A stretch of DNA of 64,000 bases from a bacterium (GTDB taxonomy: Bacteria; Bacteroidota; Ignavibacteria; SZUA-365), in the NCBI GenBank assembly GCA_020444325.1, contig JAHLLD010000010.1:62001-126000 (forward strand), in the 5' to 3' direction. Below, piece by piece: positions 4,571 through 21,659 of the stretch. A program made the translations under genes and the position numbers. The notes below the pieces were generated by a model. It saw nothing but the letters and a program-made list of their open reading frames with translations. It had not been told where the DNA came from and searched no databases. Every line of letters begins with the position of its first letter. The first letter of the stretch is position 1.

Positions 4571-6700
4571 TTAATCGTTGCGATTATAGTACTTCAGGAC
4601 GTAGTCTGAAACCATGCGATCGGTGTTGAACTCGGGGATCAGGGTCTCCATCGATTTGCGCATGCGCTGCAGCCATTTCCGGGGAATGCCGAATTCGTCA
4701 CGGTCATAGAACTCAGGGATGACCTGCTGCTCGAGAATTTCGTACAGCAGACGGGAATCATGCTCGTCCTGCTGATCGGTATCATCGACGTTCGTATCGT
4801 CACCGATACCCCAGCCATTTTCGCCGTTGTAGCCTTCCCGCCACCAGCCATCCTGTATACTGAGATTGAGTCCGCCATGAATGATAATTTTCATGCCGCT
4901 CGTTCCACTGGCTTCCATCGGACGACGGGGGTTGTTCAGCCATACATCCACGCCGCTGATCATGTGCCGCGCGACGTTGATGTCGTAGTTCTCGAGGAAG
5001 ACCACCTTGCCGAAGAGCGCAGGATTCTTGCTGTAGCCGACGATCTCCTGGATGAAGCGTTTCCCGTTGTCGTCCCGCGGGTGCGCTTTACCGGCGAAGA
5101 CGAGCTGTACGGGACGATCAGGATCGTTGATCATTTCGATCACGCGATTGAATTCCCGGAAAAACAGCGGTGCTCTCTTGTAGGTCGCGAAGCGGCGGGC
5201 GAAACCGATGGTCAGGGCGTCAGGATTGAGGATACTGTCCTGCACCGTATTGTATTCCGTCCCGGCGCGCTGAAACTGATGCCGCATCATCCTGCGCACG
5301 TACTCCACCAGATCCCTGCGCAGCCCGTAGCGCAGCGCCCAGAGGTCTTCGTCGGGAATGAGGTCGGGATCAGACACCTGCGCCCAGATCGCTTCCTTCT
5401 TCAGATAGTAAATCCACTTCGCACCGAGATGCTTGTGCCAGAATTGCCGTGTGCGATTTGCCATCCAGCCAAGGATGTGCACACCGTTTGTAATGTGGCC
5501 GATGGGCACGTCATCCGCATTATCCTTTCCGAACAATCCCTTCCACATGTCACGGCTGACCTGTCCGTGCAGTTCGCTGACGCCGTTCGCGGCGCGCGAC
5601 ATTTTCAGTGCGAGCACGGTCATGCAGAATGTCTCCTCCTCGTCATCGGGACGCTCCCGTCCATATGCGAGCAAGGCCTGATGATCGAAGCCGAGATTCT
5701 CCCTGAAACGGGAGAGCAGGTGATCAAGCAGATCGGGCGTAAAACGGTCATGCCCGGCAGGCACAGGAGTATGCGTGGTAAATACGCAGTGCTGGCGCAC
5801 CCAGCCCTCCGCGTCCTCGCGGGATTTCCCCTGCGAGAGCTGCTCACGGAGAAGTTCGACGGTGAGAAAGGCACTGTGGCCTTCATTCATGTGGAAGACG
5901 GTGGGAGCGAGCCCGAGTTTGCGCAGAAAACGTACGCCGCCAATTCCGAGAATCGCCTCCTGCATCACACGCGTGGTGCTGTCGCCTCCGTACACGCGCG
6001 CCGTGATCTCACGGTAATGCAGATCGTTTTCCTCCCTGTTGGTATCGAGCAGGTACAGCGTGGCGCGGCCGACATTGACCTTCCACGCATGGAAGAATAC
6101 GGTGCTGTGTCCGATCTCAACCGAAGCGGTGACGACATTCCCCTCGTCATCTATTACCAGTTCGACGGGGAGTTTTTTGGTATCAAGCAACGGATAGCTT
6201 TCGTGCTGCCAGCCATCGGGACCGAGTGTCTGCTGGAAGTAGCCACCGCGGTAGAAGAGGCTGACGCCGGCAAAAGGCACGCCAAGATCGCTGGCGGATT
6301 TCGTGTGATCGCCGGCCAGCACACCGAGTCCGCCCGAATAAATCGGCAGGCTCTCATGCAGACCGAATTCCGCGCTGAAATAGGCCACAAGTTCGTTGTC
6401 CGCGTTGGTGGCGTTTTCCGCATACCAGGTGTCGGACTTTGAGAGATACGCCTCGAAATCGTTGAGTACGGTTTCAATGCTCACCAGGAATTCTTTTTCG
6501 CAGAGCCGCGCCTGCAGCTCATTGCGGGAGATTGATCGCAGTACTGCAACTGCGTTGTGGTTCGAGGAACGCCATTTTCGCTCTGACAGCGCGTGAAAAA
6601 TATCCTGAGCATGTGGATTCCAGGTCCACCACAAATTGTAGGCAAGCCTGTGCAGCCCTTCGATCGCGGCGGATGTTCGTTGCATAAACGTGGCGTTCAT
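4571..6700 (-). CDS. glgP: Alpha-1,4-glucan phosphorylase (GT35)
   Basis: The 709-residue protein belongs to the bacterial short-type alpha-glucan phosphorylases (TIGR02094-like), which release glucose-1-phosphate from glycogen or maltodextrin with pyridoxal phosphate. The PLP lysine is Lys604 in EASGTSGMK. An N-terminal DUF3417-like region (AAIEGLHRLAYNLWWTWNP) is typical of this subgroup. The motif VFHMNEGHSAF is also present. The ATG at 6700 has AAAGAGG upstream and gives the family N-terminus. The in-frame codons up to 6802 look like leader. A good promoter lies about 150 bases upstream. No other glycogen gene is in the window. Confidence 0.93.
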   Translation of the reverse strand: MNATFMQRTSAAIEGLHRLAYNLWWTWNPHAQDIFHALSERKWRSSNHNAVAVLRSISRNELQARLCEKEFLVSIETVLNDFEAYLSKSDTWYAENATNADNELVAYFSAEFGLHESLPIYSGGLGVLAGDHTKSASDLGVPFAGVSLFYRGGYFQQTLGPDGWQHESYPLLDTKKLPVELVIDDEGNVVTASVEIGHSTVFFHAWKVNVGRATLYLLDTNREENDLHYREITARVYGGDSTTRVMQEAILGIGGVRFLRKLGLAPTVFHMNEGHSAFLTVELLREQLSQGKSREDAEGWVRQHCVFTTHTPVPAGHDRFTPDLLDHLLSRFRENLGFDHQALLAYGRERPDDEEETFCMTVLALKMSRAANGVSELHGQVSRDMWKGLFGKDNADDVPIGHITNGVHILGWMANRTRQFWHKHLGAKWIYYLKKEAIWAQVSDPDLIPDEDLWALRYGLRRDLVEYVRRMMRHQFQRAGTEYNTVQDSILNPDALTIGFARRFATYKRAPLFFREFNRVIEMINDPDRPVQLVFAGKAHPRDDNGKRFIQEIVGYSKNPALFGKVVFLENYDINVARHMISGVDVWLNNPRRPMEASGTSGMKIIIHGGLNLSIQDGWWREGYNGENGWGIGDDTNVDDTDQQDEHDSRLLYEILEQQVIPEFYDRDEFGIPRKWLQRMRKSMETLIPEFNTDRMVSDYVLKYYNRND

Positions 6701-6850
6701 TGATATGGCCTCTTTGGACTGTTCGATGGAAGGTATCCCGGTACTCAGGAACACGCTACTGCTCAACGGTTCCGGCGGTGGGACTGGTTCCCGGCGCCGC
6801 AATTAATCCGTGCAGTTGGTACTCCCGGTTTCAACGCAAGTATGATGCCC

Positions 6851-6889: not shown

Positions 6890-8281
6890 TCACTCGGGAC
6901 GATTTCCTGCAGGCAGCTGCAGCAGGGCCGATTCGTGCGCATTGACGGGAACGGGAGGGGAAAACAGGAGCTCGTCTGCCTTCAGCGTGCGCCTGATGTG
7001 TGCGATGTCATCAACGCGCTGGAGACGCTGGCAGACGCCGATCAGCAACTGCGCCATGGTATCCCGCAAGGCGCGCCGGGAAGGTTCGTCCTGTACCTGC
7101 AGCCAGGCATGCTGCTCGAAGAGAGTCCACAGCGTCGTGTACATTTCTGCCGCAGATCTGCTGCTCTCCGCATTTGCAATATGTCGCCGCAGAATGCGTT
7201 CGGCGGGAGTGGGAGCGACGTGCGCGCCGGTACCTATGGTCCGAGACTGCATGTCAGCATCGGAAGACACGAAGAGCGAATTGCCGCGCAGGGCGTGACG
7301 CTGTTCGATGCGCTTCCGGAAGCGGCTGCGCAAATGGACACGGACAAGGTCGGGCCGTTCGGTCAGGCCGGCATCGTTGAGGAGACAGACGAGCCCGCGG
7401 CACTGCAGTACGCTGAGATTGGTGTGCAGCAAATCCTGTCCTGCCGACAATATCACCTCTCCGGTCACACCCTCCAGCAGCGGCAGGGCACGGAGCAGAG
7501 CATGACGTATGAATTGCCCCTGATTGTACGATCGATCATGGTCGCCATACTGGTATCCTTCCCGATGTCGCAGTTCCTGCAGCGCTATGCCGGGATCAGG
7601 GTAGCCGAGAAGCGACAGCAACCCGAGTGCGTCGGAAAATCCAATTTCCATATAGTAGCGGATGCTGTCACGCCCACAGAGCCTCGCGACACGGCGCAGC
7701 AACTCCTGCCTCCCGCGCTCGGCACGGACGTTGGCAAGAATATTATACGCGTCGTCCTCATATCCGAGATACGAGAATGTGCCGCGGGGAATACTTGTTA
7801 TCTGGATTTCGGGAACGGAAGGATCAATGGAAAGCAGGTGCAGAGCATCGGCTCTCCCCTTCCCTTCGCCGAGCCTGGAATCGAGTCCGATCAGCAGCAA
7901 ATCGAGAAGCCCACCCTTTTCAGCAGCCGAGAGGTTCACTGGATACGCCGTGCCCCGCTCCTGCAGCATTGCATGCGGAAGAGGGCTGCGCGGGAACAGC
8001 GTACGCGCCGCCGCGAGGGCACTGTCGCGCCTGCCCGGGTAGAAACGCTGATACATCTGGTTGAAGGAATCGAGTGCGCCGTGGGCGATACTGCGTACCG
8101 CACGCGCACCGAGAACGTCAGGTGGCGGAGGTGTCAGAGGGTTCTGATGGAAACGTGCGAATAGCGACCAGGCAGTCAGAAAGACTGCCGTGACGCCTGC
8201 GAAAAGAAACACACGGCGCCGCAAAAGACGGGAGCGGTGCCGCCGCAGGCGATACTGCCTGTGCCGTTCGAACGTATTCAT
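6890..8281 (-). CDS. Divergent LytR-CpsA-Psr (LCP) family-like protein
   Basis: The 463 residues begin with a very basic cytoplasmic tail and one membrane helix (about 22-42). A region at about 127-230 resembles the LCP domain: LLLIGLDSR, then GKGRADALHLLSIDP, TSIPRGT (in place of the usual SIPRDT), an Asn near 180, and YYMEIGFSDALGLLSLLG. LCP proteins transfer undecaprenyl-linked polymers to cell-wall peptidoglycan or act in related envelope ligations. The last 230 residues are helical and not recognised. The Asp to Gly change in the PRDT motif makes the activity uncertain. It follows the LysM transglycosylase gene by 45 bases, probably in one operon. Confidence 0.6.
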   Translation of the reverse strand: MNTFERHRQYRLRRHRSRLLRRRVFLFAGVTAVFLTAWSLFARFHQNPLTPPPPDVLGARAVRSIAHGALDSFNQMYQRFYPGRRDSALAAARTLFPRSPLPHAMLQERGTAYPVNLSAAEKGGLLDLLLIGLDSRLGEGKGRADALHLLSIDPSVPEIQITSIPRGTFSYLGYEDDAYNILANVRAERGRQELLRRVARLCGRDSIRYYMEIGFSDALGLLSLLGYPDPGIALQELRHREGYQYGDHDRSYNQGQFIRHALLRALPLLEGVTGEVILSAGQDLLHTNLSVLQCRGLVCLLNDAGLTERPDLVRVHLRSRFRKRIEQRHALRGNSLFVSSDADMQSRTIGTGAHVAPTPAERILRRHIANAESSRSAAEMYTTLWTLFEQHAWLQVQDEPSRRALRDTMAQLLIGVCQRLQRVDDIAHIRRTLKADELLFSPPVPVNAHESALLQLPAGNRPE

Positions 8282-8326
8282 TGCAGAGCGAGTCCGCCGG
8301 AACCCCGCACATCGTGAACATACCGG

Positions 8327-11300
8327 TTACTTGTCGGTGTAATATACGAGCTTTTGTCCGATGTCGAGAAAACGGCCGATCGTATTCCAGCTTTTCAGCT
8401 GTGTGACGCTGACATTGAGTTTCCTGGCGATGGAGTACAGTGTCTCCCCTTTCTGCACGGTGTACTCATGGCGTACGCCCTGTGCTGTTTCACTCGCATC
8501 TCCGGTCTGTTCTGCAGCTTCCGACTTGCCGCTGACGCCGGATTCGGCTGCAGGCGCGTCCTTTACAGGCGCTGCCTTTGCAGGCGCGGCTTCCGCAGGC
8601 GCGGCATTCTGTTCCTTCATCGGCTGCTTTTCTGCAGCATTCTTGTCATCACCCCCCTGGACGGTATAAGTCTTTACTGCGGCTTCCTCGCCGGAGGCGT
8701 TGATCAGCAGCACCTGCCCGATCTTCAGATCGTCACTCGCAAGTTTGTTCCACATGCGAAGGTCGGCGACGGAAACGTTGTAATCTCGTGCGATGCTGCT
8801 CAGACTCTCACCCGCTGCGACGGTATGCCGCCTGATGACAACTTTCTTGCCGTTGAGCATAACCGTGGTATCCGAAGTGGGAATCCCATTCGCGGTCGTC
8901 GCTGCCTGCATGGAAGGTTTTTCATCGGTTTCGTCAGGCTTGCCAGCTTTTGCGGGAGTGCTGACTTTCTGTCCGTCCAGCTGCACATCCTGCGCCTTTG
9001 CAGGCGCGGCCTTTGCAGGTGCGGCCTTTGCAGGCTGCGCGGGAGTTGCCGGGGCGGCGGAAGGGGCGCTGACACGCAGCTTCTGACCGGCCTTCAGCAT
9101 CGTGCCATCCATCTCATTCCACTTCCGCAGATCATCGACACTCACATTGTGTTCACGCGAGATACTGTACAGATTGTCACCTGGCTGCACGGTGTACAGG
9201 TCCCTTGCCTGCTCTTTCGAAGCGGAGGCAGGAGCGCTCTGCGCTGCCCCGTCGGACGCAACGGCGGGTGTTTCCGTTTTTGCCGTCTTCGCGGGCGCTG
9301 CCGTCTTTGCGGGCGCTACCGTCTTTGCGGGCGCTACCGTCTTTGCAGGCGTCGTCGTCTTTGATGGCGTCGTCGTTTTTGCGGGGGCGACTGTCTTCGC
9401 GGGAGTTGCCGCCGTCGCGGTATGACGGACGATACGCAGTTTCTGACCGACCTGGATGCCGGGATCGGGCAGACTGTTCCACTTCATCACATCCTCAACG
9501 CTTACGCCGTACTGACGGGAAATGCGGAAAAGCGTCTCACCTTTCCGGACCACATGAACCGTGTCTTTCTCAGCCTGCTGCGCGGAAGCGCCAGCGGGTT
9601 TTTCCTGTCGCGTGGCGATTTTCGCTGATTCGCTGTTCCTGGCGGATTCGGCGTTCTTCGCGGTTGAGCCGGAACGGCCTCCTTCCCTGCGAACCTTGAG
9701 GGTGCTGCCGGATTTGATGTCGGTCGACGACAGGTCGTTCCAATCGATCAGATTCTCTATTGTGACATGGAAGGCGTCAGCGATGCTGGCGAGCGTTTCG
9801 CCGCTCTGCACCGTGTATTCACCATGAACGGCAGCCGCAGTGGCGTCCATCGTTCTGTTGGATGAAGCGCTGCCTTTCGCGTTGGCGGACACAGCTGAGG
9901 CATCGGCCAGCAGGGCGGAATTTTCTATCGTAAGACTGTCTTTTTCTTCGAGTGTTTCTTCACGCAGCCAGATATCGAGAGTCGAACCGGCGATGAGCTT
10001 GTCATTCGATTCCATGCCGTTCCAGTTCATCAGGTCATGCACGGTGACATCGAAACTCTGCGCGATGCCGCCCAGCGTCATTCCCTTTTCAATGCGCACG
10101 GCACGCTTGATGCGCCCGTTCGTGCGCTTTGTCGGATCACGCTCGCTGTCCTTGTTCGTCAGATTGTCCATCGCCACCGCGTAGGATCCCGGATCGACCA
10201 CTTCCTTGTGCGGGATGCGGAGGATTTCGCCAAGTCGCAGGTGACGCGCACTGCTCATCTCATTCGCCTTGACAATCTGTCCGACCGTAACGTGGTATTT
10301 CTTCGCAAGGCGATAGAGGCTTTCGCCCCTGCGCACCTTGTGCTCAACCATGACGATCTCTTCAGTCTTGCGAATCGGACAACTGGCGAGATTCGAAGCG
10401 AAGGTTCTCGACCTGCCTTTGGGGATGCGGAGGTTGAAGGCGCGCGGCGGCGTAATCGGCTGCAGCAGTATGGGATTGTACTGCTGAAGTTCTTCCAGCG
10501 ACACACCTGCGCAGCCTGCGAGGTCCTTCATGTGATAGGGCTTGTCTACTTGAATCGTTTCATACTCAAGGGGACGCTGCATGTCGATGTCTGAGAAATC
10601 ATATTCGTCCCTGTCCAACGCAATGATGGATGCTGCGATATAGCGCGGCACATAGTTCTGCGTTTCGCGCGGCAGATAGCGGCGCACCTCCCAGTAGGTC
10701 GGATTCTCCTCTCCGGTCTTGCGAATGGCGCGGCTGATGCGACCCGCCCCGGCATTGTATGCAGCCAGGGCAAGATGCCAGTCGCCGAAGCGGTTGTAGA
10801 GGTCGCGGAGATGGCGGGCAGCGGCGCGTGTGGCTTTTTCGGGGTCACGGCGCTCGTCGGTATACCAATCTCCCTTGAGCCCGTACATCTCCCCGGTCGA
10901 TTTGAGGAACTGCCACAAACCGACACAGGCAGCCCAGGAACGCGCGACGGGATTGACCCCGCTCTCAATCATCGTGAGGAAAATAATTTCCTCGGGCATG
11001 CCCTCCTCCCTGAGAATCGGACGCATGACGGGGAAGTAGCGTCCCGAACGCTCCAGCCATTTCACAAAATGCTTACGCATCTTCGTCGTGAAATAGACGA
11101 TGTTCTTTTCTACCTCCCTGTTGATGGGAAGCGGGATCGTCGTTGTTGGTGGTTCCTTGAAATGCAGCGGAGTGAGATCGGCGGTGTCGGCTTCCGCGTT
11201 GTTATCCGCAAGCATGGTGAGTGCGGAGATCGGGATCTCGGCATCGCTGCGTCCAATTGCATCCTCGCAGGTACGATACACGGCGGCAAGCCGTCCACTG

Positions 11301-11710
11301 AGATCGACGTATGTAGGATCCTCTTCAATTTCAGGCAGATAACTTGCGCGATCGAGTTTCTCCGAAGCGAGAATGGCCTGGTCAATGGCCGTCGTGGTGT
11401 CACCCCCGGCGAGTGCCTTGCTCGAGAGCAGCACGTGCAGACGCGCCCGGTCGAGGAGCGGCTCCTTTTCCGCGGCGCTGACCTCAATCGCTGGAGGAAG
11501 GTCTTCGATATCCAGTGCGGGACGTGGCAGCAGCGGCTCGCCATCGGCCGGCATCAGGGAATCTGCCAGCGCGAGTCCATCGCCCTGCAGTGCGGCATCC
11601 TCACGAGAAAGTTCTTTCTGCGAGGAACATGCGGAAACCACAACCGCGAGTAAAATGATGAGCAGTGATCTGGAAATCCCTGAACGAAGATAATCGCGGC
11701 GCAGAATCAT
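8327..11710 (-). CDS. Lipoprotein lytic transglycosylase with seven LysM domains (MltD-like)
   Basis: The 1127 residues start with a lipoprotein signal (cleavage before Cys28 in VVVSAC). An SLT domain follows at about 224-370, with catalytic Glu249 in MIESGVNP and AAYNAGAGR further on. A degenerate LysM-like module lies at about 384-432. Seven clear LysM domains follow, from about residue 456 to the end ([17 protein letters not shown] is the first; the last ends at the C-terminus). Long linkers are rich in Ala, Pro, Lys and Thr. The enzyme cleaves peptidoglycan to 1,6-anhydromuropeptides and binds glycan through LysM. E. coli MltD has only two LysM domains. The start at 11710 has CGAGG upstream. 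The LCP-like gene follows. Confidence 0.9.
9283..9408 (-). repeat. 18-bp tandem repeats in a LysM linker
   Basis: Seven consecutive 18-base units encode the Ala/Pro/Lys/Thr linker between the fourth and fifth LysM domains, as variants of TPAKTV and APAKTT. The units keep the reading frame, so copy-number change would only lengthen the linker. Shorter Ala-Pro-Ala-Lys repeats recur near 8550-8620 and 8995-9060. Confidence 0.8.
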
Positions 11711-11873: not shown

Positions 11874-13631
11874 CTATTGCGCTGTTTCTGTCCCCTGCAT
11901 GTCCCGATCCGGGGCGGTTTCACCAGTTTCAGGCTGACCGGACACTGCAGGATTCGCATCGGGAGGCGCTGCCTGCGAACGTGCGTCGGACTGCCTACGC
12001 GCGTCCGCGTTCGAAAGTTTCTCGAAAACGAGCACGCCGAAGGTCTGATCCGGAGCGATGAACTGCTGCAGGAGTTTGTACGTCGGATTCCCCTGGAAGA
12101 ACTCCATGGGGACATCCCCACCGAACTGGCTGTTGCCGTAATGGCTGTCCCACACGATGACGGATCCCGCTTCGGCTGTCTTCAGCGTTTCGAGCTGCAG
12201 CGAACGGTCGCGGTTGCTGTCGTTGATATCGATATCCGAGAAATAGCGGAAGAGTACGTGATTTCCGTAAAGGGGACGCTGCTGAAACTCCTCAGGCTGC
12301 TCGAGATACCATTCAGCCGCCTGCTTCACTGTCGAGGCCTCCTTGTCGAGGGTCCGCGGCTTTTCGGCATATACCGTGAAGGCGACGGTGCCGACAAGTA
12401 AAAACGTAACGAAGACGGGACCGCTGAGCATACGGGCACCGGCGAAGGCGGCGGCGAGGGCAAGTACCGCGATCATCATTCCCACATGATCCCAGCGCGG
12501 CTGGTCGGTGAGGATGAGTCCGTTGGTATCCCTTGCGAGGAACAGCACTCCCAGCAGCGCGACCACGGCGAGCAGCGCCAGACCGATGTTCCGGTTGCGG
12601 GATTCGAACAGCGTGTTGAGTCCCATGGCAGCATAGATCGCCGTCAACGGGGCGATGGACAGCAGGTAGCGCCAGTGTCCCGGATTCGCGCCGAAATTCG
12701 GGACATCCCACGCCGAAATCACGGCCCAGGCGAACATGATGGTGAAGGTGAAGAAAAAGAATCCGTGCCGGCTAATCTGCTCTTTCGCCCTCTCGAAGGG
12801 AAGAAACTCTTTCCAGTAACCGAGAACGAACAGTGAGAGGATGACCGGTCCCACCATGTATATGTACGTGCCGAAATAATGCCAGAAGGGTTTGTGCGGC
12901 ACCTCGACGCCGAGTCCGATGCGTTGCATGTCATCAAGCAGCCAGGTGGGATTGCCGGTGTGTATCCAGCCGATCAATGCAAGGGTCACCGGGGTCCATG
13001 CCAGGAGCAGGAAGGGAATCCACTGCTTGCGCATGAGGAATATCACACCGAGTCCCAGGCTCACCAGGGCAAACTCCTGTCTGATCGCGAAGACGTAGGA
13101 TGATGCCAGCGCTGCCCACACCCATCGTTCACGATAATAGAAGTACAGGGATAGCACGATGAACAGCGCAGCGGTAATCTCGCTGTATGCCCGGAAGGAT
13201 ATTTGCAGATACAGAGGCTGCGCGGCCAAAAACACCGCCGCCATCGTGGAATTTTTGATTTTGAGGGAACGGCCCAGCTTGTATGTCATGACCACGGTGA
13301 GCGCGGCAATGAAGCAGTGCGCGAGGGCGACGCCCGTGAAGCCGAACAGTCCGGGAAGTACCATGAGTATTTTCCAGCCTGGTTTGGGCTGATTGCCCAT
13401 GATGCTGAAAGGATCACCCCAGAACTGACGGATGTTGCGGTAATGCCCGATCTCATCGTCCTGGTAAAAGCCGGTGGAACCTGCGCTGAACCAGTAGTAA
13501 AGCAGTACCAGCAGCGGAATGAGCAGCCAGATGTACTTGTCCGTGAACTCGTCGAGGTTGAAGTTCGACAGCATGGTCGGCTGTTCCGAACTCTTCCCTC
13601 CCTTCTTTTTCATCTGTTTTGTCTTTGCCAT
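11874..13631 (-). CDS. GT-C fold membrane glycosyltransferase (GT39/PMT-like)
   Basis: The 585-residue protein has a Lys-rich cytoplasmic start and about eleven or twelve membrane helices between residues 33 and 425, then a soluble C-terminal region of about 160 residues ending in a low-complexity tail. The first outside loop carries YQDDEIGHY, the acidic pair expected in GT-C transferases that use polyprenyl-phosphate sugars. It probably adds a sugar to an envelope glycan or protein on the periplasmic face. The acceptor is unknown. It is the last gene of a four-glycosyltransferase run, six bases after the GT4 gene. The name is from fold-type features only. Confidence 0.7.
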
Positions 13632-13637
13632 GGTGTC

Positions 13638-14804
13638 TCAGCTCCGTGTCTGCTTGAGGCTGCGATGATACAGTTCTTCAATTCCCTCCGCCATGTGCTC
13701 CCATGAATACTTGCGCTTCTCCTCGATGACGTTCTCGCGGTACTGCGCAAATCGGTCGTGCGTGAAGAAGTCGACCACAGCTTCGGCGAGCGCTGCGGGC
13801 TGTTCAGGCGGCACAATGGCGCCGGTTTTCCCGTCGACGATGACTTCTCCGAGTCCCCCGACATCGGTGGCGATGACGGGACGATGGAAGTTGTAAGCGA
13901 TCTGAATGATACCGCTCTGTGTTGCCGACTTGTACGGCAGGGTGAGCAGATCCGCGGCGGAGAAATACATCCCCACTTCTTCGTTCGGTACGTAGTCCGA
14001 ATGGAAATGCACGTAGTCCTGCACACCGAGGCGGCGCACCTGTTCGCGGTACTTTTCTTCATTGTTGTAAAACTCACCGACGACCAGCAGGCGCACCTTC
14101 ATCCGTTCGAGAATACGCGGCAGGGCGTCGAGAATGACATCGAGTCCCTTGTAATCACGCACATAACCGAAGAACAGGAGTACGCGTTCGTCCTGCGCGA
14201 GCTGCACACCATCCGCCCGCTGTGCGAGCGCGACACGGGCACTGTGACGATTGCTCTCTTCACCGAAGATTTCATACACCGGGTGCGGCAGATAGCTCAG
14301 GAGGGGATTTTTCTTCCAGAGCCTGAGGTCGCGCTCGACGGCGCGGGACTGCACCACGTAACTGTCGATGAAGCGAAACGCGAATTTCGTCAGCAGCTTG
14401 TCGCCGGGTCTGCGCTCATGTGGAATGACATTGTCGCAGATGAACATGGTGCGCGTCTTCCTGCCCACCCGCGCGATAGCGGCAATCGTGCCGTAGGAGG
14501 GTGCGAAAAAAGGCATCCAGAATTTGAAAACGATCAGGTCGGGCTGCATTGCGCGTACGCGGAAGCCCGTGCGCACCCAGTTGAAGGGATTGATGGAATC
14601 GATCCACTGCACACTTTCGACGGGTACGCCGGCATCGCCGGATTCGTCCTGTGATTTTCCGGGGAAAAGCAGTTTCGGATACTGACGGGAAAACGTGACA
14701 ATGCGCACGTCATGGCTGCGGGAAAGGTATTTCCAGAGCAGACCGACATAGTGGGCTATGCCGCCCCGCAGGGGAAAGGCTGTCCCGATCAGCACGATGT
14801 TCAT
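13638..14804 (-). CDS. Glycosyltransferase family 4 (GT-B)
   Basis: The 388 residues form a GT-B retaining glycosyltransferase. The N-terminal domain starts IVLIGTAFPLRGGIAHY. The C-terminal domain has LLFFGYVRDYKGLDVILDA, the acidic EEVGMYFSAADLLTLPY segment, and TDVGGLGEVIVDGKTGAIV, all typical of GT4. It is cytosolic or membrane associated and probably extends a surface polysaccharide or LPS core. The start overlaps the GT9 stop by four bases (ATGA), so the two are coupled. Donor and acceptor cannot be read from sequence. Confidence 0.88.
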   Translation of the reverse strand: MNIVLIGTAFPLRGGIAHYVGLLWKYLSRSHDVRIVTFSRQYPKLLFPGKSQDESGDAGVPVESVQWIDSINPFNWVRTGFRVRAMQPDLIVFKFWMPFFAPSYGTIAAIARVGRKTRTMFICDNVIPHERRPGDKLLTKFAFRFIDSYVVQSRAVERDLRLWKKNPLLSYLPHPVYEIFGEESNRHSARVALAQRADGVQLAQDERVLLFFGYVRDYKGLDVILDALPRILERMKVRLLVVGEFYNNEEKYREQVRRLGVQDYVHFHSDYVPNEEVGMYFSAADLLTLPYKSATQSGIIQIAYNFHRPVIATDVGGLGEVIVDGKTGAIVPPEQPAALAEAVVDFFTHDRFAQYRENVIEEKRKYSWEHMAEGIEELYHRSLKQTRS

Positions 14805-15922
14805 GATGTGCTGCCGGCCTCCACCGCCGCCCAGCGCTGCACGGCAGCGAAGACATCATCCACTTCGAGGTGTTCCATACAGACATAGTCTTTGTTCGTA
14901 CATGTCGGCATGAAGAAGCAGGTGCATTCACGCGAGGGCTGCAGGATTTCGCCGCGGCCGTAGAGCTCGAATTCGTTGGGATTGAAGATGTTGTTGAACA
15001 GCACCAGCGGCTTGTGCAGTCCGATCGCCAGGTGCATGGCCATGGTGACGGCAGAAACGATGACATCGCAGCGGTCGAGCAAGGCGATGAAGGTTTTCAG
15101 CGGGAAATGGCCGAGATACAGTCCCCCGCTCGCGCGGGCGAGGCGCTGGTTTTTCTCATGCTCCTGCTCGCCGCCGAGGAACAGCGGCTGCATTCCCGCA
15201 GCGATCAGCTTGCGTGCGAGTTCAATCCAGTACTCTTCCGCCCAGAGACGCGTCGTCCATCGTCCCCCGCAGCCGGTGTTGAGTCCGATCAGTTTTTTCC
15301 CTTCGAACGCCGGCATGCCCTGCGCGAGGAGCGTGGCGTCGATATCGAACGGTGTGTCAACCTCGAGGATGTAATCCTCGCCCTGCCAGTCGTAGCCGCA
15401 GATTTCGAAAATCTCTTCGACGTAGTGTTTCGTATTCGCCTTGTTGAGGTCGTCGAAGAGTCCGGTGAGGAATTTGTGTTCGGCGTCGGCATCGATCGGA
15501 GCGCAGATGCCGTTCACGATGGTAAAGCCTTTTTTTACACTGGCTTCGAGGCGGTCGGCGAGTGCGCAGGCTTCGCGGTCCTTATCCAGGTTGATCACCA
15601 GGTCAAAGTTGACGGCGAGCACCGAGATGACCCCGGCCATGTCGAATTTCAGCACCCGGTCCACATCTCCCGGCACCACGTCCGGCGTCAGCGTGAGCCA
15701 CCAGATCCTCGCGCCCGGATATTCTTTGCGGAGTCTGTGCAACAGCGGTGTCGTGCGAATGACGTCACCGATGGCGCCAAGTTTGATGATGAGGATGTTC
15801 CTGTCGGTCGGCTCGTAATATGCGCAGTCGGCGCAGTGCACGCCCTCCCGCTTGTGGGGTGCGCAGGGGATGTCGCCGCGGAAATGGCGGCAGTCGGCCT
15901 TGTAGACGATGCGTTGTGTCAT
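14801..15922 (-). CDS. Glycosyltransferase family 9 (heptosyltransferase-like) with N-terminal Cys module
   Basis: About 373 residues. The core matches GT9: ILIIKLGAIGDVIRTTPLL, then GLNTGCGGRWTTRLWAEEYWIELA and TMAMHLAIGLHKPLVLFNN. GT9 enzymes are ADP-heptose:LPS heptosyltransferases and relatives. Before the core lies a short cysteine-rich module of about 35 residues (DCRHFRGDIPC, then VHCADCAYYEPT), which could bind a metal. I recall similar N-termini in relatives from this superphylum. The ATG at 15922 is preferred because the longer in-frame form runs into the GT2 gene. Four-base overlap with GT4 downstream. Confidence 0.85.
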   Translation of the reverse strand: MTQRIVYKADCRHFRGDIPCAPHKREGVHCADCAYYEPTDRNILIIKLGAIGDVIRTTPLLHRLRKEYPGARIWWLTLTPDVVPGDVDRVLKFDMAGVISVLAVNFDLVINLDKDREACALADRLEASVKKGFTIVNGICAPIDADAEHKFLTGLFDDLNKANTKHYVEEIFEICGYDWQGEDYILEVDTPFDIDATLLAQGMPAFEGKKLIGLNTGCGGRWTTRLWAEEYWIELARKLIAAGMQPLFLGGEQEHEKNQRLARASGGLYLGHFPLKTFIALLDRCDVIVSAVTMAMHLAIGLHKPLVLFNNIFNPNEFELYGRGEILQPSRECTCFFMPTCTNKDYVCMEHLEVDDVFAAVQRWAAVEAGSTS

Positions 15923-15947
15923 GAAACCTGGATATTGATTTTCGTAG

Positions 15948-17006
15948 CTAAGAAAGCGTCTCGCGAATGGTGTAGTCCCGCACATTCGTGCCCGACTTCG
16001 TCACCATTTCCGCCAGTAGTCCCGTACTGATCAGCTGAATACCGAGCAGCATGAGGAGGATACCGAGAAGGAGCATGGGACGGTTGCCCACCGGGTAGCC
16101 CATCAGCCATTCGATAGTAAGCCAGACATTGATGAAGAAGCCGGCGAACAGCATGATACTGCCCATTGTCCCGAATACGTGAAGGGGACGCTGTGTGTAG
16201 CGCGAGGTGAACATGACGGTGAGCAGATCGAGAAAGCCCTTGAAAAAACGCGAAAGCCCGAATTTCGTCTTGCCGTATTTGCGGGGATGATGCTGCACCA
16301 CCAGTTCGGTCACCGTAAATCCCGCCATTTTGGCGAGCACCGGGATATAGCGGTGCATCTCGCCGTAGACGTTCACCGCCTTGATGACCTCACCGCGATA
16401 GGCTTTCAGTCCACAGTTGAAATCATGGATGCTGATACCGGAGAGCTTGCCGGTCACGAAATTGAAGAATTTCGATGGGATTGTTTTGGAGATGGGATCA
16501 AAGCGTTTCTTCTTCCAGCCCGAAACCATGTCCCACCCCTCATCGATTTTCGCGATCAATGCGGGAATTTCTGCGGGATCGTCCTGCAGATCGGCATCCA
16601 TCGTAATCACGTATTTCCCCGCCGCGCGTTCGAAACCGACGGCGAGCGCGGCGGATTTCCCATAATTCCGGCGAAAGCGCACCATCTTGAAGCGCGGGTC
16701 CTCGGCATGGAGACGGCGCAGGGTTTCGACAGAGCCGTCATGACTGCCGTCGTCGATAAACCAGACTTCCCAGAGCGCACTGCGGGCGGAAAGCACTTCC
16801 TTCAGACGGGACGAAAGTTCCGGGAGGGATTCATTTTCATTATAGGAAGGAATGACGACGGAGACATCCAGCGCATACTCCTCTGCGTCGTGTGCGGCGG
16901 GAGCGGTCTGCGGTGTTTCCGTGCTGATGGGATGTTCCTGCGTTGTCTGCAATAGTCCTTCCGATAGTAAAAAATGAAAAATATCAGTCACAGGCGTGAT
17001 ATGCAA
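15948..17006 (-). CDS. Polyprenyl-phosphate glycosyltransferase, family 2 (DPM1/GtrB-like)
   Basis: The 352 residues contain a GT2 domain (about 48-275) with VVIPSYNENESLPEL, the metal-binding stretch MDADLQDDP and FRRNYGKSAALAVGFERA. Two C-terminal membrane helices follow (about 285-310 and 318-345). This layout is that of GtrB/ArnC/DPM1-type enzymes that load a sugar on undecaprenyl phosphate at the inner face of the membrane. It is the first gene of the run and could supply the lipid-linked donor for the GT-C protein encoded last. This pairing is inferred. The first 40 residues are low complexity and may not all be translated. Confidence 0.88.
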   Translation of the reverse strand: MHITPVTDIFHFLLSEGLLQTTQEHPISTETPQTAPAAHDAEEYALDVSVVIPSYNENESLPELSSRLKEVLSARSALWEVWFIDDGSHDGSVETLRRLHAEDPRFKMVRFRRNYGKSAALAVGFERAAGKYVITMDADLQDDPAEIPALIAKIDEGWDMVSGWKKKRFDPISKTIPSKFFNFVTGKLSGISIHDFNCGLKAYRGEVIKAVNVYGEMHRYIPVLAKMAGFTVTELVVQHHPRKYGKTKFGLSRFFKGFLDLLTVMFTSRYTQRPLHVFGTMGSIMLFAGFFINVWLTIEWLMGYPVGNRPMLLLGILLMLLGIQLISTGLLAEMVTKSGTNVRDYTIRETLS

Positions 17007-18435: not shown

Positions 18436-18526
18436 ATCTGCGATCTGCAATCTGCGATCTGCAATCTGTAATCTGCGATCTGCAATCTGTAATCTGTAAT
18501 CTGTAATCTTCTATCTGCAATCTGCT
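18436..18526. repeat. Heptad array, 13 units of ATCTGNN
   Basis: Thirteen contiguous seven-base units ATCTGYR (one unit degenerate). The array starts two bases after the octad repeat and ends inside the mazG stop codon (18525-18527 on the minus strand). Confidence 0.9.
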
Positions 18527-19292: not shown

Positions 19293-19354
19293 AGATGTTC
19301 CGCTGTGTGGTAATCCGTTAAGATAGGGGTTTTGGCGGACTTCGTACACGATTG

Positions 19355-19529
19355 CAGATTTCAGATTGCAGATTGCAGATTTCAGATTGCAGATTGCAGA
19401 TTTCAGATTGCAGATGGCAGATTTCAGATTGCAGATGGCAGATTTCAGATGGCAGATTTCAGATGGCAGATTTCAGATGGCAGATTTCAGATGGCAGATT
19501 TCAGATTGCAGATGACAGATGGCAGATGT
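19355..19529. repeat. Heptad array, 25 units of CAGATNN
   Basis: Twenty-five contiguous seven-base units, mostly CAGATTT, CAGATTG and CAGATGG, lie in a 488-base gap between mazG and ftsX. The orientation is opposite to the arrays at 18436-18526 and 19652-19714, so either pair could form a long stem. No promoter or gene is evident inside it. Confidence 0.92.
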
Positions 19530-19638: not shown

Positions 19639-19651
19639 TATCGATTTTGGA

Positions 19652-19714
19652 ATCTGTAATCTGTAATCTGGAATCTGGAATTTGGAATCTGGGATCTGGG
19701 ATCTGCAATCTGAG
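19652..19714. repeat. Heptad array, 9 units of ATCTGNN
   Basis: Nine seven-base units (ATCTGTA, ATCTGGA, ATTTGGA, ATCTGGG and similar), inverted relative to the array at 19355-19529. It closes the composite repeat region 67 bases before ftsX. Confidence 0.88.
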
Positions 19715-20711: not shown

Positions 20712-21659
20712 ATGGCCAGCTCGAAATCACTTTACCCGTTTCATCTCACGCCCGGGGGACCCCAGCTCAGCAAAGCCATGCTGGCACAGTGTCCCAGAGA
20801 CCTGCGCAAAAACCCGGAAGCTCGTCTCCTGCTCGAAGGCTGCCGCATGGGGGAACATCTCCTCGCCCTGAGTCAGCTCTTTTCAGGACGCATCGTCGGC
20901 ATCGACGAGGATGCAGAGACAGTGTTCTATGCAAAAATGGCCATCGCTGAAATGCGGAAATCGCAGCAGATTTCCGCGCAGTTCATGACTCCGGTACAGA
21001 CGAATTTCCCGGACGCAAGCTTTGACATCGTCATGCTCGAGGGACTGCTGTCAGGCTATCCTGCGGGGCGCGTACTCAAAGAGGCACTGCGCGTGCTCAA
21101 ACCCGATGGCTGGCTGCTGATCTCGGATTCGTGCTGGCTCGAGGACAACATTCCGACCTATGTGCGTGAAATCTGGGAATCACCGGATCACAAGCTGCTC
21201 GATTCCGGCGGCATGCAGCAAACGCTGGAAGAAAAGGGACTGCGCATCGTCAACATCGAGGACCGTTCCTCCGTGCTCGCTTCGTTCTACAACCAGTTCA
21301 ACAGTACGGTAAAGGGAATCGCGAAAAGCGGATTCGAGGGGATGAAGCACATGAAGGGACTGATCAAACACTACAAGCATGAAATCGATGTCTACCACCG
21401 GCATGGTGGCGACCGCTACATGGGATATTTGAGCGTCGTATGCCGCCGCGACGCGCCCGCCCAGGAGAAAGACCCTGCAAAGGATGAACTCCCAGCACAG
21501 AATGAAATCCCAGCACAGAATGATTCCCCTGCACAGAATGAAATCCCGGCACAGAATGATACCCCGGCGCAGAATGAAATCCCGGCGCAGAATGAAATCC
21601 CGGCGCAGAATGATTCCCCGGCGCAGAATGATACCCCGCCCCCGAAAGAAGAATCCTGA
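20712..21659 (+). CDS. Class I SAM-dependent methyltransferase with repeat tail
   Basis: The 315 residues contain a Rossmann methyltransferase domain: LLEGCRMGEHLLALSQLF (motif I, glycine-poor), VGIDEDAETVFYAKMAI, then FDIVMLEGLLSGYPAGRVLKEALRVLKPDGWLLISD. About 130 further residues are helical with many Lys and His. The last 56 residues are a low-complexity tail of eight PAQN hexapeptides followed by PPPKEES. Substrate unknown. The first motif departs from the usual GxGxG, so cofactor binding should be treated as probable only. It lies after ftsX and convergent with uridine kinase. Confidence 0.75.
   Translation: MASSKSLYPFHLTPGGPQLSKAMLAQCPRDLRKNPEARLLLEGCRMGEHLLALSQLFSGRIVGIDEDAETVFYAKMAIAEMRKSQQISAQFMTPVQTNFPDASFDIVMLEGLLSGYPAGRVLKEALRVLKPDGWLLISDSCWLEDNIPTYVREIWESPDHKLLDSGGMQQTLEEKGLRIVNIEDRSSVLASFYNQFNSTVKGIAKSGFEGMKHMKGLIKHYKHEIDVYHRHGGDRYMGYLSVVCRRDAPAQEKDPAKDELPAQNEIPAQNDSPAQNEIPAQNDTPAQNEIPAQNEIPAQNDSPAQNDTPPPKEES
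21492..21635 (+). repeat. Eight 18-bp tandem repeats encoding PAQN(E/D)x
   Basis: Eight in-frame 18-base units encode PAQNEI, PAQNDS or PAQNDT at the end of the methyltransferase. Near-identical codons in each unit suggest recent expansion. Confidence 0.9.

What the first reader, a model, noticed from the sequence alone, without database searches (positions are those of the whole stretch)
6890..11710. LCP-like protein paired with a seven-LysM transglycosylase in an LPS bacterium
LCP proteins mainly attach polymers to Gram-positive peptidoglycan. Here a divergent one (PRGT for PRDT) is encoded 45 bases after a peptidoglycan lytic enzyme with an unusually high number of LysM domains. The pair might anchor a glycan or lipoprotein to peptidoglycan. 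The 230-residue C-terminal part is unassigned.
Basis: partly seen in the sequence, partly recalled or inferred. Interest (0 to 1): 0.5.

Follow-up and report, generated by a model that had tools for sequence, protein, structure and literature searches.

The report
LCP enzyme beside a wall-cutting lipoprotein
In an uncultured Gram-negative bacterium, a probable wall-glycan-attaching enzyme is encoded directly after an enzyme that cuts the cell wall, and this pairing is kept in related bacteria, which gives a concrete place to test what such attachment enzymes do in bacteria with an outer membrane.

Summary
Window 6890-8281 (-) encodes a 463-residue LCP protein: Pfam just over its cut-off, predicted LCP fold (Z 18.2 to B. 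subtilis TagV), and all pyrophosphate- and Mg-binding residues present. It starts 45 bases after a 1127-residue SLT/LysM lipoprotein with seven LysM domains, the genome's only PF01464 match. Two selling points weaken. PRGT is not special: 25 of 70 relatives have Gly there, with at least five changes on the tree. Six or seven LysM domains are normal in this order. The 'unassigned 230 residues' are mostly the rest of the LCP domain plus a ~90-residue TPR-like domain shared across the family. What stands is the pairing. The genome has two LCP paralogs. The fast-evolving one follows the same SLT/LysM gene in 9 genomes of two families, wherever the contig is uncut; none of 52 other LCP loci shows it. 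In the window's family the pair ends a GT2-GT9-GT4-membrane-protein gene run next to waaA. Most likely it is an active LCP phosphotransferase linking an undecaprenyl-PP glycan to peptidoglycan at sites worked on by its lytic partner. Acceptor and glycan are inferred, not shown. New variant of a known kind; moderate interest.

The parts
6890..8281 (-). LCP (LytR-CpsA-Psr) protein, 463 aa, type-a paralog
   Evidence: PF03816 over cut-off; profile and fold matches to solved LCPs; all catalytic residues present
8156..8212 (-). single N-terminal membrane helix, residues about 24-42, preceded by an Arg-rich stretch (N-in expected)
   Evidence: sequence read directly; long helix 3-44 in the model
7286..7918 (-). 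LCP domain, residues about 122-332
   Evidence: model and VIA alignments covering 122-325
7778..7789 (-). PRGT in place of PRDT (residues 165-168)
   Evidence: 25 of 70 relatives have Gly here
6947..7219 (-). C-terminal TPR-like helical domain, residues about 355-445, with invariant Q390, W393, Q395, R402, R406 in 17 aligned relatives
8282..8326 (-). 45-base gap between the two genes
   Evidence: coordinates
8327..11710 (-). MltD-like lytic transglycosylase lipoprotein, 1127 aa, SLT + 7 LysM
   Evidence: PF01464 87.3 bits, PF01476 7 stretches; only PF01464 match in the genome; lipobox VVVSAC-SS
10703..11011 (-). SLT catalytic domain with ESG and GLWQF motifs (residues 234-336)
8336..10348 (-). 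seven LysM domains and Ala/Thr/Ser/Lys/Pro-rich linkers (residues 455-1125)
11874..13631 (-). 585-aa multi-membrane-span protein, GT-C-like by inspection, no Pfam match; sits upstream of the SLT gene in 13 of 13 genomes of families f1 and f2
13638..14804 (-). GT4 glycosyltransferase
14801..15985 (-). GT9 (heptosyltransferase-like)
15948..17006 (-). GT2, polyprenyl-phosphate sugar transferase-like (start codon uncertain)
4571..6802 (-). alpha-glucan phosphorylase, next gene after the LCP in family f1 (start codon uncertain)

Best explanation
An inner-membrane LCP phosphotransferase and an outer-membrane MltD-like lytic transglycosylase act on the same peptidoglycan layer as a pair. The LCP holds an undecaprenyl-pyrophosphate-linked glycan in its hydrophobic tunnel, and its arginines and Mg-binding aspartates drive transfer of the glycan phosphate to peptidoglycan, most likely the C6-OH of MurNAc. 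The lytic enzyme binds the wall through seven LysM domains and opens strands nearby. Glycan attached at C6 would also block the 1,6-anhydro cut there, so the pair could balance cutting and protecting. Shown here: family, predicted fold, active-site residues, two paralogs, conserved pairing. Inferred: activity, acceptor, glycan and coupling. My estimates: active phosphotransferase 0.85; functional tie to the SLT gene 0.65; peptidoglycan as acceptor 0.55.
For: LCP fold: Z 18.2, rmsd 3.1 over 191 residues to TagV; Cps2A with bound octaprenyl-PP Z 17.5. Residues matching Cps2A D234, D246, R267, R362, D371, R374, Q378 (roles from review PMC7831098, passages; pairing by the alignment) are D134, D145, R166, R238, D247, R250, Q254, each present in 70 of 70 rows that reach the column (71 rows). 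Type-a LCPs form one clade (93/90, 10 rows) and have the SLT gene directly upstream, same strand, in 9 of 9 genomes whose contig is uncut there (G000, 1, 2, 6, 8, 9, 10, 13, 14); among the 60 named loci, 7 of 8 type-a (the 8th cut) and 0 of 52 others have it within the fetched flank. The surroundings differ between the two families, yet the pair stays (glucan phosphorylase after it in f1, S8 peptidase in f3). dN/dS about 0.1. The genome has undecaprenyl-P sugar transferase genes: 2 PF00953 and 4 PF02397 matches over cut-off. In 19 of the 60 named LCP loci the facing neighbours are an M23 peptidase and a MurA-like gene, a second, weaker link to the wall.
Against: No biochemical evidence for any LCP in this phylum was found. 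Two near-complete relatives in the same family (G005, 99%; G007, 98%) keep the glycosyltransferases and the SLT gene but lack the type-a LCP, so the SLT does not need it. The SLT gene is in 61 of 61 genomes, the LCP in 25 of 61. The Asp of PRD, suggested to help bind peptidoglycan in S. aureus LcpA (review PMC7831098, section 20; that its D123 is this residue I infer from numbering offsets), is Gly here, which could mean a different acceptor. The M23/MurA neighbours are convergent, not co-transcribed.
Confidence: 0.5

Rival explanations
1. The LCP glycosylates protein: it transfers a lipid-linked glycan onto the long Ala/Thr/Ser/Pro/Lys-rich linkers of the neighbouring SLT/LysM lipoprotein, as A. 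oris LcpA does with the genetically linked GspA.
For: Genetic linkage to a large periplasmic lipoprotein with 353 linker residues, 19% Thr+Ser, between LysM domains; upstream GT2 and membrane-transferase-like genes; LcpA/GspA precedent (PMC6381275, start of abstract and passages); loss of the PRD Asp.
Against: SLT proteins without an LCP beside them (G005, G007) have similar linkers and D-S/T-x counts; PRD-to-PRG also occurs in LCPs not beside an SLT.
Confidence: 0.2
2. The pair is a neighbourhood of convenience: an envelope gene run where two independent wall genes were kept together by co-transcription, without shared sites or substrate.
For: The SLT gene is universal in the sampled class (61 of 61) and has its own stable partner, the 585-aa membrane protein upstream (13 of 13 in f1/f2); type-a LCP missing in G005, G007, G012.
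Against: The other LCP paralog and all 52 non-type-a named loci are not near the SLT gene, while type-a LCPs always are where the contig allows.
Confidence: 0.25
3. Type-a LCP is a decaying duplicate with little or no activity.
For: Longer branches than type b; PRD-to-PRG.
Against: All catalytic residues kept; dN/dS 0.10 in two type-a pairs, near the 0.07-0.09 of two type-b pairs.
Confidence: 0.05

Closest known systems
LCP (LytR-CpsA-Psr) glycopolymer transferases, PF03816: B. subtilis TagT/U/V, S. pneumoniae Cps2A, S. aureus LcpA/MsrR
   Same: fold, single N-terminal membrane helix, Mg-binding Asp pair, phosphate-binding arginines, Gln
   Different: diderm host; Gly for the PRD Asp; added C-terminal TPR-like domain; linked to a lytic transglycosylase
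Actinomyces oris LcpA (protein glycosylation, linked to gspA)
   Same: LCP gene linked to the gene of a large envelope protein (PMC6381275, PMC7831098, passages)
   Different: partner here is a lytic enzyme lipoprotein; no sortase link; no glycosylation evidence
MltD-type membrane-bound lytic transglycosylase (NF008050)
   Same: lipoprotein, SLT domain with ESG/GLWQF, C-terminal LysM domains
   Different: 331.8 bits against the equivalog cut-off of 508; seven LysM domains with long linkers
LCP proteins reported earlier in Bacteroidetes, cyanobacteria, Thermus and others
   Same: LCP domain in Gram-negative bacteria (PMC2632651, passages)
   Different: that 2008 survey names only Pedobacter sp. 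BAL39 and Bacteroides capillosus for Bacteroidetes; none from this lineage in the passages read

Membership tests
LCP family (PF03816) | profile match over the curated cut-off | tested here: met
   24.8 bits against 24.6, only just; NCBIfam TIGR00350 19.9 against 62.3, not reached
LCP family (PF03816) | LCP alpha-beta-alpha fold | tested here: met
   predicted model pLDDT 86.5, pTM 0.81; Foldseek 1.9e-8 to Cps2A; Z 18.2 to TagV
LCP family (PF03816) | Mg-binding Asp pair and phosphate-binding Arg/Asp/Gln, including the Pro-Arg of PR(D)T | tested here: met
   70 of 70 filled rows at each position; the Asp that follows Pro-Arg is Gly here, and in 25 of 70 rows
LCP family (PF03816) | N-terminal membrane helix, catalytic part outside the cytoplasm | tested here: met
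   hydrophobic stretch read and helix 3-44 in the model; topology itself not measured
LCP family (PF03816) | phosphotransfer of polyprenyl-PP-linked glycan | not testable with these tools
   needs an enzyme assay
MltD equivalog (NF008050) | score over the equivalog cut-off | tested here: not met
   331.8 against 508; so MltD-like, not filed as MltD
SLT lytic transglycosylases (PF01464) | SLT domain with catalytic Glu motif | tested here: met
   87.3 bits against 21.3; ESG motif
A. oris LcpA-type protein-glycosylating LCP | glycan transfer to a protein acceptor | not testable with these tools
   no assay; linkage alone
TPR-like repeats (C-terminal domain) | TPR helical hairpins | tested here: inconclusive
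   Z 8 to 11 to TPR and designed helical proteins, within the range of chance for helical folds

The most novel reading that the evidence does not exclude
A diderm has recruited an LCP enzyme with a TPR-like docking domain as the dedicated partner of an outer-membrane lytic transglycosylase: the lipoprotein, built by LysM to sit on peptidoglycan, receives the LCP or brings it a site, and a glycan made with the adjacent LPS-core-like glycosyltransferases becomes covalently fixed to the wall or to the lipoprotein, giving a covalent glycan link between outer membrane and peptidoglycan unlike Lpp.
Probability: 0.12. Interest if true: 0.8.

Novelty: new variant of a known kind. Interest (0 to 1): 0.4.

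Why it matters
What LCP enzymes attach in bacteria with an outer membrane is largely open. Here the enzyme is tied by gene order to one named wall enzyme and, in one family, to a short list of glycosyltransferases, so substrate, acceptor and partner can each be tested. The unit also separates the wall-linked LCP copy from its paralog beside metabolic genes.

Tried and rejected
PRGT as a mark of a divergent function: rejected as specific, since 25 of 70 rows have Gly with at least 5 changes on the tree. Seven LysM as exceptional: rejected for the order. C-terminal domain as a new fold: not claimed; TPR-like arrangement with middling Z; that Pfam matched no second domain such as LytR_C or TPR in the LCP protein is told here only. 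Glycosyltransferase genes as an obligate part of the unit: not supported, since no homologs of the window's glycosyltransferases were found in the f3 stretches fetched (their upstream flanks are short, about 2.6 kb in G013 and 3.5 kb in G015 and none in G014). M23/MurA adjacency as operon evidence: rejected because convergent. Literature: LytR-CpsA-Psr with lytic transglycosylase gave 5 papers, none on such a pair by title and start of abstract; Kapabacteria with LytR 0; Ignavibacteri with LytR 0; LCP family with diderm 1, on Streptomyces; with outer membrane and cyanobacteri 7, 6 listed, of which one was looked into by passages. These searches cover open-licence PMC papers only. The phylum survey used profile A2, so LCPs too far from it could be missed; PF03816 itself was run only on the own genome, with E up to 1, where even E. 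coli 'rings', so only matches over the cut-off count.
Full report
What is there. On the minus strand, 11710-8327 encodes a 1127-residue lipoprotein with an SLT lytic transglycosylase domain and seven LysM domains; 45 bases later, 8281-6890 encodes a 463-residue LCP protein. The window is part of contig C10 of a 4.65-Mb, 100% complete genome. Named relatives are MAGs labelled Kapaibacterium, Ignavibacteria, Bacteroidetes or Chlorobiota; a few bear labels that look misassigned. The window holds LpxC-FabZ, LpxA, Omp85 and WaaA, so an LPS-bearing diderm is well supported.

The LCP is genuine. Single-sequence scores are weak (24.8 bits against a cut-off of 24.6), but a 47-row profile finds solved LCPs at 2.7e-12, and the AlphaFold model (pLDDT 86.5, pTM 0.81) matches TagV at Z 18.2 (rmsd 3.1, 191 residues) and lipid-bound Cps2A at Z 17.5. 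The residues that a review gives for Cps2A (D234, D246, R267, R362, D371, R374, Q378; PMC7831098, passages) correspond, by the alignment printed, to D134, D145, R166, R238, D247, R250 and Q254. Each is present in 70 of 70 rows that reach the column, of 71 rows in the tree; the missing row is a contig-cut fragment.

PRGT. Gly replaces the Asp in 25 of 70 rows, in and outside the paired copies, with at least five changes on the tree. The review says D123 of S. aureus LcpA may help bind peptidoglycan (section 20). I infer from numbering offsets that this is the same position; no direct alignment was printed. So the change may touch acceptor binding but does not mark this protein off from its relatives.

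C-terminal part. The LCP domain reaches about residue 325-332. Beyond it lies a helical domain (about 355-445) shared by both paralogs and by LCPs across the class: Q390, W393, Q395, R402 and R406 are invariant in 17 aligned rows, and the same five in 41 C-terminal rows. Folded alone it is TPR-like, Z up to 11, which for helical folds can be chance.

Two paralogs. The genome has a second LCP at C5, about 87.4-88.7 kb, with PRDT. In the tree (71 rows) the paired copies (type a) form a 10-row clade (93/90), seven from family f1 and three from f3. Type b forms a 15-row clade (100/97), in most f1 members next to a MetH-like gene (B12-binding and activation domains) and genes that by inspection encode GapA, Pgk, a rhomboid protease and IspG. 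So the duplication predates the split of f1 and f3. Both types are under purifying selection (dN/dS 0.10, 0.10 for two type-a pairs; 0.09, 0.07 for two type-b pairs; synonymous sites are near saturation in three of the four).

The pairing. Of the 16 order-level genomes G000-G015, nine have SLT then type-a LCP on one strand (G000, 1, 2, 6, 8, 9, 10, 13, 14). In four the question is cut by contig ends (G003, where an LCP fragment lies at a contig end beside the phosphorylase gene; G004; G011; G015). Three keep the SLT gene without a type-a LCP (G005, G007, G012; G012 is 74% complete). In one search's 60 loci, 7 of 8 type-a loci have the SLT gene (the eighth is cut) and 0 of 52 others do within the flanks held; the seven are the same genomes as in the count above, not new ones. 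In f3 an S8 peptidase follows the LCP; in G007 (f1) an S8 peptidase 48% identical to the f3 one directly follows the SLT gene and precedes the phosphorylase. The simplest reading is an ancestral SLT-LCP-S8 order with LCP loss in G007 and S8 loss in the window's line.

Wider surroundings. In f1 the unit follows GT2, GT9, GT4 and a 585-aa membrane protein. That protein lies upstream of the SLT gene in 13 of 13 f1/f2 genomes (G000-G012), with or without the LCP. It has no Pfam match even at E 10 and one weak NCBIfam match to a cell-surface glycopolymer formation family, 23.7 bits against 150. WaaA diverges from the gene run. Elsewhere in the class, 19 of 60 LCP loci face an M23 peptidase and a MurA-like gene, mostly after a MazG gene, and 9 of 60 have a histidine-phosphatase gene right after the LCP.

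Distribution. The LCP is found in 25 of 61 relatives and in 29 of 395 genomes drawn from the phylum; the SLT gene in 61 of 61. The pair is thus a lineage-limited addition to a universal lytic enzyme.

Mechanism. Family and fold give the chemistry: binding of a polyprenyl-PP glycan and phosphotransfer. The genome has 2 PF00953, 4 PF02397 and 3 PF04932 matches over cut-off, so such lipid-linked glycans are plausible. The lipobox with Ser after the Cys suggests outer-membrane placement of the SLT protein (sorting rule recalled, not tested), the LCP helix inner-membrane placement; both would face the peptidoglycan. That C6-substituted MurNAc would resist lytic transglycosylases follows from their 1,6-anhydro product (established chemistry, recalled). 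The acceptor remains undecided between peptidoglycan and protein.

Verdict. New variant of a known kind, interest 0.4.

Noticed in passing
window 11874-13631: 585-aa membrane protein with a DDE motif near the N-terminus and no Pfam match at E 10; upstream neighbour of the SLT/LysM gene in 13 of 13 f1/f2 genomes. Possibly a new GT-C-type glycosyltransferase family.
   Followed up: partly
window 18436-18525, 19350-19528, 19648-19712: Heptamer tandem repeats (GATTGCA-like, up to about 25 copies) on both sides of the mazG gene.
   Followed up: no
window 21473-21638: 18-base repeats giving a PAQNEI/PAQNDT peptide repeat at the C-terminus of a methyltransferase.
   Followed up: no
L068-L107 (19 loci): In much of the class the LCP gene follows mazG and faces an M23 peptidase and a MurA-like gene; in the window mazG lies about 10 kb from the LCP.
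   Followed up: partly
L141 843-3866 and L055 3896-5869: S8 peptidases 48% identical sit after the SLT gene (G007) or after SLT-LCP (f3), pointing to a larger ancestral cluster.
   Followed up: partly
L098 6488-9260: Two LCP genes in tandem in one Kapaibacterium MAG.
   Followed up: no
L065, L094: MAG records labelled Ectothiorhodospiraceae and Bradyrhizobiaceae carry LCPs of this family and look mislabelled.
   Followed up: no
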